Shown: positions 47,200 through 51,727 of the stretch, one piece after another
Layout of the letters: every line of letters begins with the position of its first letter
Numbering within the stretch: the first letter of the stretch is position 1
NCBI RefSeq assembly: GCF_023617305.1
Contig: NZ_CP081485.1
Span: forward strand, 1,230,501 to 1,294,500
DNA from: Methanobrevibacter sp. TLL-48-HuF1
GTDB lineage: Archaea > Methanobacteriota > Methanobacteria > Methanobacteriales > Methanobacteriaceae
DNA: 64,000 nucleotides
Direction of reading: 5' to 3'
The notes under the pieces: generated by a model
Databases searched by the model: none
Seen by the model: the letters and a program-made list of their open reading frames with translations, nothing else
Told to the model about the DNA's origin: nothing
Made by a program: the position numbers and the translations under genes

Positions 47200-47772
47200 A
47201 TGAAAGATACAAACGAAATTGAAGAAAATAAAAAAGCTAATCCTCACACCAATTCAGTTTCTATAATTGAAATCAATGGTAATTATGGAAATTCTGAATG
47301 TGGAATTGATAAAGAGGATATACTTGATGTAATGGGCTGTAAAACAAGAAGGGAGATTATAAATCTCTTAAGGGAAGAACCAATGTTTGTAAGTGAAATT
47401 TCAAATGAACTTAACATTGGTCAAAAAGCAATCATAGAACACTTGCGGGCTATGGAAAACGTTGGAATATTAAGTTCTTCTTATAAAAAGATTGTTAGAG
47501 GTAGACCTCGTAAATATTATGATTTGGATCATGAAGTTAATATTCATATTACCATTAATAAGAACACGTTTAATGTAAACTTCAGTGAAGATATGTTAAA
47601 TACGCCCCAATTACCTTCTGGTGATGAATGGTCTAAATTATTGGATATTGAAAAAAGAATTGATAATGGTCAAACAGAAGCTATTTCAGAACTTATGAAT
47701 CAAATAAGGTTATATGATAATCTTAAAAACAGAGCAGAATATATTTTAGAGCGAACTCTTAAAAATAAATAA
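47200..47772 (+). CDS. ArsR-like winged-helix regulator next to grpE-dnaK-dnaJ
   Basis: A 190-residue protein. Residues about 1-38 are polar and probably flexible. A winged-helix domain (about 42-115) follows, with the segments MGCKTRREIINLLREEP, FVSEISNELNIGQKAIIEHL and GRPRKYYDL. The C-terminal part (about 115-190) is predicted helical and could serve for dimerisation. Archaeal heat-shock repressors such as Phr have a similar plan, and the divergent position next to grpE suggests control of the chaperones; this is inference. The start ATG is about 25 bases from the TATA box, so the mRNA is probably leaderless and the two upstream repeats are likely binding sites. Confidence 0.8.
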   Translation: MKDTNEIEENKKANPHTNSVSIIEINGNYGNSECGIDKEDILDVMGCKTRREIINLLREEPMFVSEISNELNIGQKAIIEHLRAMENVGILSSSYKKIVRGRPRKYYDLDHEVNIHITINKNTFNVNFSEDMLNTPQLPSGDEWSKLLDIEKRIDNGQTEAISELMNQIRLYDNLKNRAEYILERTLKNK

Positions 47773-48007
47773 ATTAGCTGTTGTTTGTATCTATTCTTTT
47801 TTTATTTTTTGACCTTAAAAAATATTTTATTTAAATCTGTAAGTTAATTGCAGTCAAATTTTTTGTTAAAAGAATGTATAACTTTTAGAATTATTCGAGA
47901 TAAAGAATTATAATGTTTTTATCAGATTTGAAAAGAAGATTATTGGCTATTTTTTGTGGTGTTTAAGCAGGTATGAATATTTTTGCAGGGTTAGTTTTTT
48001 GTGTTGT

Positions 48008-48154
48008 TTATTTTTCCATTTCTTTCCATCGTTTTTCAAATTCTATTTCTTTCATTAATTCTTCGTGTCTTTGTTCATTTACTTTTTCTAAATATTCTTT
48101 GTCAATACCGATGCCTCTTGTTCTCCATTCTCGTGAGAGTCTTTTAAGATTCAT
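48008..48154 (-). CDS. 48-residue charged protein, unknown function
   Basis: A short gene behind a strong ribosome-binding site (GAGGTG, 6 bases before the ATG). The product starts MNLKRLSREWRTRGIG, then is Lys/Glu-rich and probably one long helix, ending KRWKEMEK. It starts 37 bases after the stop of the proteasome-like gene in the same direction, so they are probably one operon. There is no signal peptide or metal site, and I do not recognise it. The ribosome-binding site and complete frame argue that it is real. The 235 bp from 47773 to 48007 show nothing else I can support. Confidence 0.6.
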   Translation of the reverse strand: MNLKRLSREWRTRGIGIDKEYLEKVNEQRHEELMKEIEFEKRWKEMEK

Positions 48155-48191
48155 TTTTTCACCTCATATATTAATTCATTTTTTTATTTAT

Positions 48192-49343
48192 TTAAAAATT
48201 TTTATTCATTTTTTCATCAAAAAATTGGGGATTTATCTTTGGATCAAAATAGGGATTTCTTTTTTTCCAAATAAATCCATCACCTTTGGAAATAAGGGCA
48301 ACATCAATATTTCCACCTACACTTTCTAAATTTGAATCTATTTTTCTTTTTAATGAAGTAATTTGTATCAGAGATTCTGCTAAATTTCCTATTTCTTCCC
48401 TAGGCAAAAAATCTAATGATTCAAGTATTGGAGAATAAAAATCTTTTTTTAAAGAATTAATATTATTTTTAAAGTTTTTAGTCAGCTGGTTTTTAATTTC
48501 GTTTATTTTTTCTAATTTTTCAACATTTATGTGGTCATACATATTGCAAATATAATTTTCCATAATGTTCACGAAATATTTTTTAATTTCATCTTCTAAA
48601 TTAGCATCAATTCCAGATAAATAAGTTTCAATGACATCTGTTTGGGCAAATGGAATTATTAATGTTCCAGAATAATTTAATTTTGTATCCATGTTTTGAT
48701 AAAGTAGTGTATTATTAACATTTGCGATTATATTAAATGAAACATATGATGGAAACATATCTTCTTTATTAAATCCTGCAATTAATATTCCTGTTGATAT
48801 ATTAAATATATAGGAACAAAAACATTTTTTTAAATTATTTAAATTAATTTTAGATTCATCATACTCTTTTATTATCTCTTTAAACTTTTCATTGTATTTT
48901 TCAGTTTCAAAAATATCTTTTAAAAATTCGAATATTTCTACATTAGAAAATGTTTCTATAAATTGATAAAACTCTAATTCATTACATGAGTTTCTCTGCT
49001 GATTTATCATTTGCTTAAAATTTTTCAAATGTGAATCTAGAAAGATGTTTATGTTTGTTGCTTGAGTTACTTCTGTTAGATACCTTAAAAAATCGTTTTT
49101 AATATTTATTATATTTTTTAGCTTTTTAAAGTCAGTTTTCTTAGAATATTCTTTGATTAAAGTTTCTATGGAGATATTTTCAAATTTTCCTAATCCAAAT
49201 ACCATAATTCCCATTGGGGGATCATTTGAAAGCATAAATATTTTATTAACTCCATTATATGTTTTTTTATCATTTATTGTAATTGTACTGTCCGCAGCCA
49301 GTGCTATTACATCAGTATTCATAATTATTATTTCGGATGTCAT
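48192..49343 (-). CDS. Proteasome-like Ntn-hydrolase, uncharacterised
   Basis: A 383-residue protein whose first 60 residues look like a proteasome beta subunit: M-TSEIIIMNT, then ALAADSTIT and NKIFMLS. If the initiator Met is removed, Thr2 becomes residue 1, Asp18 becomes 17 and Lys34 becomes 33, the exact catalytic Thr1/Asp17/Lys33 numbering of proteasomes. The next segment (PPMGIMVFGLG) also fits. The middle and C-terminal 250 residues are not proteasomal; they are largely helical, and the end reads GGNIDVALISKGDGFIWKK. A TATA-like TTTAAATATT about 27 bases upstream suggests a leaderless message. It is followed by the 48-residue gene. The substrate is unknown. Confidence 0.72.
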   Translation of the reverse strand: MTSEIIIMNTDVIALAADSTITINDKKTYNGVNKIFMLSNDPPMGIMVFGLGKFENISIETLIKEYSKKTDFKKLKNIINIKNDFLRYLTEVTQATNINIFLDSHLKNFKQMINQQRNSCNELEFYQFIETFSNVEIFEFLKDIFETEKYNEKFKEIIKEYDESKINLNNLKKCFCSYIFNISTGILIAGFNKEDMFPSYVSFNIIANVNNTLLYQNMDTKLNYSGTLIIPFAQTDVIETYLSGIDANLEDEIKKYFVNIMENYICNMYDHINVEKLEKINEIKNQLTKNFKNNINSLKKDFYSPILESLDFLPREEIGNLAESLIQITSLKRKIDSNLESVGGNIDVALISKGDGFIWKKRNPYFDPKINPQFFDEKMNKNF

Positions 49344-49428
49344 ATTTGAACATATAATCTGAATAATATTTAAAGTTTGTTTAAGTTATTTTGAAAAAAT
49401 TAGTTAATCATGTAAAAATTACATGAAA

Positions 49429-51678
49429 TTATAAAATTGTTTTAGCTACAATAGCCTGACCTAATGAAACAGATCCGTCACCGGCACATGTGTTCTTATG
49501 CTGAATAAAGTTATATCCGTTTTTCTCAATGTAATTTTTACAGGTATTGGTTATTGCTTCATTGTAAAAGACACCTCCGGTAGCCCCAATGTCGAAAATA
49601 CCTTTTTTATCTGCACTTTCAATAGCTATTTGGGACAGTCCTTTTGCTATTGCATTTTGAGCAGCATTTGCAATATCTGCTTTATTTTCTCCTTTTTGAT
49701 ATAATCTGACAACTTCACGGAGGATTTCACGGGTATTTAATACATTATCTTTGATTTCAAATGGAATTTCGAGATCATTTTTGGAGTAATATGCAACAGA
49801 TTCCAATTTCATTGAACATTCTCCTTCATATGTTCTGGTATTGCATATTTTCAGAGCTGCTGAAACAGAGTCCAATACTCTTCCGGTACTTGTTGTTAAT
49901 CCGACGTTGATTTCTGCTTCCAATTGCTTGTAAATATTTTTGATTTCCATTTCTCCGTATTTGAAGTAATCAACATAATTGCCAATTAATTCTTCATCAT
50001 CTAAAATACTTAAAAGCATTCTTATTGGGTGTTTGGTTGCCATATCTCCACCAGGCATTTTATGTGGCTGCAGGTGACCTAATCTTTCAAAATTGTTAAT
50101 GTCGGTGTATAATATTTCTCCGCCCCAGCTTGTGTTGTCACTTCCATAGCCTACACCGTCTGCAGCTATTACAATCATTTCATCAAGACCGTAATCATTA
50201 GCCAGTGCAACACTATGTGCATGATGGTGCTGCACACCTATTACATCACACTCAAATTCATCACCGAATTCATGAGCTAGTTTTGTTGTAAAGAAATGTG
50301 GATGCAAATCACATGCAATTGCATCAAAGTCCTTTATTTTAGTGATTCTTTCCATATTTTCAATAGCTTCTTTCATGAAGTTTAAAGTTTTTAATTTGTT
50401 TGTATTTCCTATATGCTGGGAAGGATAGCACATATTGTCTTTAGCTATTGCAAATGTAACATCAAGCTCGGGGCCTAAGGCAAGTACATTTAAATCATTT
50501 ACTTCATAATTGATTTTATAGGGCTCAGGAGTATAACCTCTGGATCTGCGAATAAATGAAAGAGCATCATTTCTAAATCGGATAACTGAATCATCACATC
50601 TGTTTAAAATTCTGCGGTTATGGATTAAAGAATAGTCTGAAATTCCGTCTAAATTCAGAATTTCTGTATTTGTAATCATCATAGGCTCCCCGGGAGTATT
50701 GGCTGAGGTCATTATATATGTATCAATGTCTCCTTCATCAAAAAGCAGATAATGCATTGGAGAGTAGGGTAACATAACTCCGATATTGTGCAAACCGGGA
50801 GCTAATGACTCTGGGAAGTTATAATTATTGTTTTTCTTTAAAACTACAATAGGTCTTTTATTTGAAGTTATTGTAGCTATTTCATTATCAGTTAATCTGG
50901 CATAATTTTTAACACAGGATAAATCTTCACTCATAACAGCAAAAGCCTGATTTGGACGATTCAGGCGTTTTCTTAATTCTTTAATGGTTTTGTCATTATA
51001 TGCATCAGCTGCTAAATGAGTTCCGCCGATTCCTTTAATGGATATAATTTTACCTTCTTTCAGTTTATCTGTAGCTATTTTAATGGGGTTATCACTGTCT
51101 ATTTCTTCTGATCCTTTATATATCTTCATTTGAGGTCCGCAGTCACTGCAGCAAATGGCTTCACCGTGATAACGTCTGTTTAAAGGTTCGCTATATTCCT
51201 TAAGGCAGCTGTTGCATAATGGAAATTCATCCATTGAAGTTCTAACTCTGTCATAAGGAACACTGTCAATAACTGTAAATCTGGGACCGCAGTCAGTACA
51301 TGCATTAAAAGGATATTTATAACGTCTGTCTTTCGGATTTCTTATTTCATTAAGACAGCTGTCACAGATAGCTATATCTGGAGGTATTACAGATACTCCT
51401 GAAAATTCATCTGAACTTTCAATTATTGTAAAATCATCAAAACCTTCAACAGCAATATCTTCTGTTTTCATTGAGTCTATTTTAGCTATTGGGGGCAATT
51501 CTTTAGGTAATCTCTCAATAAATAAGTCAATATTTTCTCCTTCAAGAATTATCTCAACTACATTTCCTAAATTTCTTACATGTCCGTTTAAATTCAAATC
51601 TTTTGCAAGTCTGTAAATATAAGGTCTGAATCCTACACCCTGAACAATTCCCTGAGTTAAAATCTTTTTTGCCATCAT
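49429..51678 (-). CDS. hypF: Carbamoyltransferase HypF ([NiFe] hydrogenase maturation)
   Basis: HypF makes the carbamoyl-thiol on HypE from which the cyanide ligands of [NiFe] hydrogenases derive. All domains are present in order: acylphosphatase (about 1-90, GIVQGVGFRPYIYRLA), paired zinc fingers (CDSCLNEI/CTDCGPRF and CNSCLKEY/CCSDCGP, about 105-185), a YrdC-like domain (about 195-385) and the Kae1/HypF C-terminal domain with GVQHHHAHSVAL. A TTG at 51684 is possible; I chose ATG 51678 (ATG 51675 is equally likely). It is divergent from larB. The frh hydrogenase in this window is one expected client. Confidence 0.96.
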   Translation of the reverse strand: MMAKKILTQGIVQGVGFRPYIYRLAKDLNLNGHVRNLGNVVEIILEGENIDLFIERLPKELPPIAKIDSMKTEDIAVEGFDDFTIIESSDEFSGVSVIPPDIAICDSCLNEIRNPKDRRYKYPFNACTDCGPRFTVIDSVPYDRVRTSMDEFPLCNSCLKEYSEPLNRRYHGEAICCSDCGPQMKIYKGSEEIDSDNPIKIATDKLKEGKIISIKGIGGTHLAADAYNDKTIKELRKRLNRPNQAFAVMSEDLSCVKNYARLTDNEIATITSNKRPIVVLKKNNNYNFPESLAPGLHNIGVMLPYSPMHYLLFDEGDIDTYIMTSANTPGEPMMITNTEILNLDGISDYSLIHNRRILNRCDDSVIRFRNDALSFIRRSRGYTPEPYKINYEVNDLNVLALGPELDVTFAIAKDNMCYPSQHIGNTNKLKTLNFMKEAIENMERITKIKDFDAIACDLHPHFFTTKLAHEFGDEFECDVIGVQHHHAHSVALANDYGLDEMIVIAADGVGYGSDNTSWGGEILYTDINNFERLGHLQPHKMPGGDMATKHPIRMLLSILDDEELIGNYVDYFKYGEMEIKNIYKQLEAEINVGLTTSTGRVLDSVSAALKICNTRTYEGECSMKLESVAYYSKNDLEIPFEIKDNVLNTREILREVVRLYQKGENKADIANAAQNAIAKGLSQIAIESADKKGIFDIGATGGVFYNEAITNTCKNYIEKNGYNFIQHKNTCAGDGSVSLGQAIVAKTIL

Positions 51679-51727
51679 AGTCAATATATATTTAAATATA
51701 ATTATTGTATAAAATAGTTATGATAAT

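What the first reader, a model, noticed from the sequence alone, without database searches (positions are those of the whole stretch)
48192..49343. Proteasome-like protein with perfect Thr1/Asp17/Lys33 spacing and no propeptide
After removal of Met1, the residues Thr2, Asp18 and Lys34 fall exactly on the proteasome catalytic numbering 1, 17 and 33. The context (ALAADS, NKIF, GIMVFG) also matches. The remaining 250 residues are not proteasomal and are longer than any beta subunit. A methionine aminopeptidase of the type present here would expose the Thr, so self-cleavage is not needed. This could be an uncharacterised Ntn-hydrolase with its own partner (the 48-residue gene).
Basis: partly seen in the sequence, partly recalled or inferred. 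Interest (0 to 1): 0.64.

Follow-up and report, generated by a model that had tools for sequence, protein, structure and literature searches.

The report
Mobile proteasome-like protein with tiny partner
This archaeal gene encodes a relative of the proteasome's cutting subunit with its active-site residues intact, and it travels across microbes and phages as a two-gene unit with a tiny, previously overlooked partner protein that in some relatives is replaced by a toxin-antitoxin pair, giving this poorly understood protein family its first concrete functional lead.

Summary
The 383-aa ORF starts MT; after Met removal Thr, Asp and Lys sit at 1, 17 and 33. In an 85-sequence alignment these three residues plus two glycines are the only invariant columns. 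AlphaFold2 plus Foldseek gives a proteasome-like fold. The family is known: PMI homologues, probably PMI-4 (Fuchs et al. 2021), for which no genomic context was found.

What appears new is context. A same-strand small partner gene (mostly 34-83 aa) follows it in 158 of 159 sampled loci from archaea, bacteria and phages, far above control genes (p<1e-30), under purifying selection (omega about 0.12), usually unannotated or hypothetical. The window's 48-aa ORF sits in that slot. The pair fills a 1.66-kb gap between hypF and a regulator that is short in 12 of 13 relatives. In seven genomes of the same genus the partner slot holds an antitoxin-like gene followed by a ParE/RelE toxin.

Best reading: a self-contained mobile switch in which a dedicated Thr-type Ntn hydrolase acts on, or is held by, its small partner, in toxin-antitoxin or phage-exclusion style. 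Identity is secure; mechanism is inferred. A tethered AF2 model did not dock the partner.

The parts
48192..49343 (-). Proteasome-like Ntn hydrolase, PMI-4-like, 383 aa, no propeptide
   Evidence: AF2 pLDDT 83.9, pTM 0.79; Foldseek top 50 all 20S proteasome subunits
49338..49340 (-). Codon of Thr2 (Thr1 after Met removal), predicted nucleophile
   Evidence: invariant in 85 of 85
49290..49292 (-). Codon of Asp18 (proteasome Asp17)
   Evidence: invariant in 85 of 85
49242..49244 (-). Codon of Lys34 (proteasome Lys33)
   Evidence: invariant in 85 of 85
48801..49052 (-). Helical insertion 1, residues 98-181, after the first helix pair (H1/H2)
   Evidence: model secondary structure; absent from short relatives L010, L011, L019
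48414..48605 (-). Long helices, residues 247-310, insertion in the H3/H4 region
   Evidence: model secondary structure; mostly gapped in L010, L011, L019
48276..48326 (-). Proteasome-like C-terminal motif, residues 340-356, ESVGGNIDVALISKGDG
   Evidence: in register with T. acidophilum proteasome beta
48008..48154 (-). Small partner gene, 48 aa, 37 nt downstream, same strand
   Evidence: same-slot partner in 158 of 159 sampled loci
47773..49428 (.). Inserted segment between hypF (49429-51684) and a regulator (47200-47772) that holds only these two genes
   Evidence: gap of under about 100 bp in 12 of 13 relatives, a different ORF in the 13th; GC of the large gene 0.23 against 0.31 for the window

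Best explanation
A PMI-type proteasome homologue and a dedicated tiny partner form a self-contained, horizontally moving two-gene module. SHOWN by computation: proteasome-like fold, invariant Thr1/Asp17/Lys33, no propeptide, near-universal partner gene in the downstream slot, partner under purifying selection, clean two-gene insertion at this locus, prophage, satellite and plasmid carriage, and in a genus subset an antitoxin-like gene plus a ParE/RelE toxin in the partner slot. INFERRED: Met removal exposes Thr1; the enzyme makes a specific cut in (or is held inactive by) the partner, through the partner's short aromatic-Pro motif and C-terminal helix; a trigger such as phage infection tips the balance. 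In the three-gene form the enzyme would destroy the antitoxin and free the ParE/RelE toxin; in the two-gene form the enzyme itself, or its cleavage product, would be the effector. The module would serve as a phage-exclusion or addiction device of its carrier.
For: Fold and residues. Partner in the downstream slot: 69/79 genome loci against 82/414 control genes, 69/78 viral loci against 64/341, p about 1e-31 each; after allowing earlier starts only L087 lacks one. Partner family: 42 homologous members across archaeal and bacterial phyla, consensus Y.S..E..K..FP...DP...G..LA...L; aromatic-x-Pro motif in 76/132 against 21 shuffled; median omega about 0.12. Mobility: empty site, patchy presence in 24-27 of 67 genus genomes, 13 phage and satellite and 10 plasmid records. 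Prophage positions typical of lysogen-expressed cargo: beside a repressor-like gene or opposite to Q in E. coli, at satellite ends. TA link: 6 of 40 ParE hits in 67 genomes lie directly downstream of this gene, about 0.006 expected, in two subfamilies.
Against: No biochemical data. The tethered AF2 model gave the partner only pLDDT 46-66, so no docking is supported. The two-gene form has no known toxin. The TA link is seen in one genus only; no recurrent third gene appears in the 160 wider loci. Similarity of the TA-linked antitoxins to the partner family is suggestive only (best E 0.047, overlapping shuffles). No PADLOC hit for either protein. Residues at the positions of proteasome Asp166/Ser169 are not conserved as such.
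Confidence: 0.45

Rival explanations
1. The partner is an activator or assembly cofactor, as HslU C-terminal tails are for HslV: it docks by its aromatic motif, switches the Ntn hydrolase on or orders its oligomer, and the substrate lies elsewhere (phage or host proteins).
For: Near-universal pairing with one partner per enzyme; conserved short motif and C-terminal helix; C-terminal aromatic ending in the enterobacterial phage cluster.
Against: Does not explain why an antitoxin-like gene plus ParE/RelE toxin sits in the partner slot of some relatives; no confident docking.
Confidence: 0.25
2. A plain two-gene toxin-antitoxin pair: the Ntn hydrolase is the toxin and the partner its inhibitor, which is not a substrate.
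For: Size, mobility and slot; toxin-first order occurs in known TA families such as higBA (own knowledge).
Against: The 42-member partner group is conserved across archaea and bacteria, unlike most stand-alone antitoxins (own knowledge); in three-gene loci a separate toxin is present.
Confidence: 0.15
3. A connectase-like transpeptidase that joins the partner, or a segment of it, to another protein through a Thr1 acyl intermediate.
For: Connectase is a proteasome homologue of methanogens that acts as a specific protein ligase and has a helical insertion (PMC8665760).
Against: Connectase lacks the first helix pair and its insertion lies between S3 and S4; here the insertions are at other sites.
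Confidence: 0.08
4. A generic protein-quality-control protease of the cell; the partner is incidental.
For: Proteasome-like fold.
Against: Normal proteasome genes are elsewhere in the genome; patchy distribution, phage and satellite carriage, and a partner in 158 of 159 loci.
Confidence: 0.05

Closest known systems
PMI class of proteasome-like homologues, most likely PMI-4 (Fuchs, Alva and Lupas 2021, PMC8665760)
   Same: Proteasome-like core, Thr1/Asp17/Lys33, no propeptide, insertions after H1/H2 and between H3/H4, found in bacteria, Euryarchaeota and phages
   Different: Their paper reports no informative genomic context; here a conserved partner gene and, in one genus, a TA link are found. 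Their alignments could not be fetched, so the exact subgroup rests on architecture and distribution
HslV
   Same: Thr1/Asp17/Lys33 spacing; E. coli HslV also exposes its Thr by Met removal (own knowledge)
   Different: HslV works with the AAA+ unfoldase HslU; here no ATPase is linked, and there are about 150 extra helical residues
Connectase
   Same: Methanogen proteasome homologue with a helical insertion
   Different: Lacks H1/H2, insertion at S3/S4, acts as a ligase
Anbu
   Same: Foldseek matches the second family model
   Different: No comparable insertions; no small partner reported in the papers read
PHROG phrog_5990
   Same: Window protein matches at E 3e-71
   Different: Only a cluster of phage proteins, no function assigned
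ParE/RelE type II toxin-antitoxin modules
   Same: Present directly downstream in seven relatives
   Different: Absent at the window locus

Membership tests
Ntn hydrolase / proteasome-like superfamily | Proteasome-like fold | tested here: met
   AF2 pLDDT 83.9; Foldseek top 50 all proteasome subunits, prob 1.00; second model also proteasome and Anbu
Ntn hydrolase / proteasome-like superfamily | N-terminal nucleophile Thr1 with Asp17 and Lys33 | tested here: met
   Invariant in 85 of 85
Ntn hydrolase / proteasome-like superfamily | Oxyanion Gly47 equivalent | tested here: inconclusive
   Gly50 is G in 71 of 85, N in 9
Ntn hydrolase / proteasome-like superfamily | Processed N-terminus and hydrolase activity | not testable with these tools
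   needs mass spectrometry and an assay
PMI-4 | Insertions after H1/H2 and between H3/H4 | tested here: met
   Helices 98-181 and 247-310 in the model; criteria from PMC8665760; PMI-3 shares them
PMI-4 | Distribution: bacteria, Euryarchaeota, phages | tested here: met
PMI-4 | Sequence clustering with the PMI-4 reference set | not tested
   reference alignments are not in the databases at hand
PF00227 Proteasome (Pfam) | Match above the curated score | tested here: not met
   no PF00227 match for the window protein up to E 1; sub-threshold for the short relative L010
Connectase | Lacks H1/H2; insertion between S3 and S4 | tested here: not met
   secondary structure of the model
Type II toxin-antitoxin system | Adjacent toxin of a known family | tested here: not met
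   no PF05016 match in the window's genome; present next to this gene in relatives
Type II toxin-antitoxin system | Toxicity of one gene, rescue by the other | not testable with these tools
   experiment needed

The most novel reading that the evidence does not exclude
PMI proteasome homologues are the protease arm of a new kind of mobile toxin-antitoxin or phage-exclusion system: a dedicated threonine protease without a linked ATPase that reads a cognate tiny protein and, in three-gene versions, releases a ParE/RelE toxin by destroying its antitoxin.
Probability: 0.3. Interest if true: 0.85.

Novelty: new variant of a known kind. Interest (0 to 1): 0.62.

Why it matters
Twenty-two proteasome-homologue subfamilies were catalogued in 2021 without functional context. 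Showing that this PMI group, found across many phyla and in phages, is tied to a tiny partner gene and moves as a two-gene unit gives a direct handle: clone two genes, mutate one Thr, and ask what happens to the partner. If the TA reading holds, proteasome relatives would join the mobile-element arsenal, and antitoxin turnover would have a dedicated protease instead of Lon or Clp.

Tried and rejected
Single-protein genome-contig scan found nothing and the full alignment was too divergent to scan with; a closer subset worked. phmmer of the single sequence against PDB gave only chance hits. hhalign against narrow proteasome alpha and beta alignments was weak, though Thr1 aligned to Thr1; the enlarged profile A5 was no better against PDB than A1. 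An alignment that mixed partner-only rows misaligned and was dropped. The tethered AF2 model of enzyme plus partner was negative for docking. Partner profile against the TA-linked antitoxins: suggestive, not significant one by one. Search for a recurrent neighbour or third gene in the wider loci: none. A phrogs scan of partners failed on a coordinate slip and was not repeated. Paper searches found nothing on a PMI partner (TA surveys and the DefensePredictor paper checked).

Full report
OBSERVATION. The ORF 48192-49343 (-) is 383 aa from ATG and starts MTSEIIIM; Thr2, Asp18 and Lys34 are as reported. It matches no Pfam, NCBIfam or PADLOC model convincingly but matches phrog_5990, a phage family of unknown function, at E 3e-71. 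Homologues are in 13 phage or satellite records, 10 plasmids, 24-27 of 67 genomes of the window's genus, at least 480 genome-contig stretches from many phyla, archaea included, and 153 viral-contig stretches.

IDENTITY. In 85 aligned sequences, 22-41% identical to the window protein, only T2, D18, K34, G185 and G190 are invariant. 155 of 159 resolved homologues start M/V/L-T at the same position, so there is no propeptide. The family profile finds proteasome beta of Thermoplasma as its best PDB match (E 6e-4), Thr1 on Thr1, and the C-terminal GG-x-IDVAxIT-KxDG segment in register. The AF2 model (pLDDT 83.9, pTM 0.79) matches only 20S proteasome subunits in the top 50 Foldseek hits, probability about 1.00; a second member gives proteasome and Anbu. 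TM-scores are modest (0.4-0.6 by target) because of helical insertions at residues 98-181 and 247-310. The genome has ordinary proteasome genes elsewhere.

KNOWN FAMILY. Fuchs, Alva and Lupas (PMC8665760) described 22 proteasome-homologue subfamilies. PMI-3 and PMI-4 carry insertions after H1/H2 and between H3/H4; PMI-4 occurs in bacteria, Euryarchaeota and phages. The window protein fits PMI-4 by architecture and distribution; the reference sequences could not be compared. The paper states that no genomic context suggestive of function was found and that propeptides are absent outside proteasome beta and HslV.

PARTNER GENE. In 69 of 79 genome loci and 69 of 78 viral loci a same-strand ORF of 40-95 aa starts within -20 to +45 nt of the stop, against 82 of 414 and 64 of 341 control genes from the same loci (Fisher p 7e-31 and 1.5e-31). 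Viral loci include near-identical copies, so the genome set is the better test. With relaxed limits (30 aa and more, starts from -110 to +60 nt) all but one (L087) of the resolved loci have one, though two broken copies (L115, L162) and the partial L191 were judged by their relatives only. 126 non-redundant partners include a homologous group of 42 from archaea and many bacterial phyla, consensus Y.S..E..K..FP...DP...G..LA...L, and a phage group with EWQKKFNP. An aromatic-x-Pro motif occurs in 76 of 132 against 21 expected from shuffles. Close pairs show a median omega of about 0.12, so this is a protein under purifying selection. It is typically unannotated or 'hypothetical'. The window's 48-aa ORF, 37 nt downstream, occupies this slot; its sequence is too diverged to join the 42-member group, so its assignment rests on position.

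MOBILITY. In 12 of 13 related genomes hypF and the regulator are separated by under about 100 bp; the 13th has another ORF there. The window has 1656 bp that hold only the two genes; the large gene is 23% GC against 31% for the window. In E. coli (22 of 5426 genomes) the gene lies opposite to Q in a lambdoid prophage or directly after a repressor-like gene in an immunity region, positions that suit lysogen-expressed cargo. In streptococcal satellites it lies at the element's end.

TOXIN-ANTITOXIN LINK. In seven genomes of the genus the partner slot holds a 67-83 aa gene followed by an overlapping or adjacent ParE/RelE-family toxin, in both full-size (L003, L263, L268) and short 266-aa (L235, L234/L011, L019, L012/L236) members (the toxin of L011 is below the Pfam cut-off). 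Genus-wide there are 40 ParE hits in 67 genomes and six lie directly downstream of this gene; about 0.006 expected. Some loci are near-identical (G015 and G026), so independent events are perhaps four; the probability for four is 7e-11. The N-termini of three of these antitoxins show G-x3-A-x3-L spacing like the partner family, but a profile search does not separate them from shuffles individually. No such third gene recurs in the 160 wider loci.

MECHANISM. Shown by computation: fold, catalytic residues, partner, mobility, TA link in one genus. Inferred: Met removal exposes Thr1; the partner is the cognate substrate or inhibitor; the module acts as a switch. The tethered enzyme-partner AF2 model, made by reading through the intervening stop at L092, left the partner at pLDDT 46-66 and neither supports nor excludes binding.

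VERDICT. Real, and more interesting for its partner than for its Thr/Asp/Lys spacing. Known protein family, apparently undescribed operon. The literature search covered open-licence full texts only, so prior description elsewhere cannot be excluded.

Noticed in passing
L029, L032, L035 (Rhizobiales plasmids): The homologue lies a few genes from a multiubiquitin plus ThiF-family E1 operon (with a ClpP-like gene in two of them).
   Followed up: no
L264 (+66 and +391 after the large gene), L273: Two tandem copies of the partner gene behind one enzyme gene.
   Followed up: no
G017 and other genus genomes: Many fragmentary or stop-interrupted copies, up to 10 matches in one genome, which suggests rapid gain and decay.
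   Followed up: partly
L222 (G006) and L221 (G013): The same hypF-regulator gap holds a different 297-aa ORF in G006, and a transposase-like ORF lies between the regulator and grpE in G013: a possible insertion hotspot.
   Followed up: no
L233 / L010 (G005): A short-type enzyme is followed by an unrelated 142-aa gene instead of antitoxin plus toxin; its N-terminus resembles that of the TA-linked small proteins.
   Followed up: no
L295 4787-6190: RefSeq start of the E. coli homologue is upstream of the family-wide MTAEI start; probably mis-annotated.
   Followed up: no
window 49343-49380 (-): A TTTAAATA box close upstream of the ATG and no clear ribosome-binding site: possibly a leaderless archaeal transcript.
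   Followed up: no
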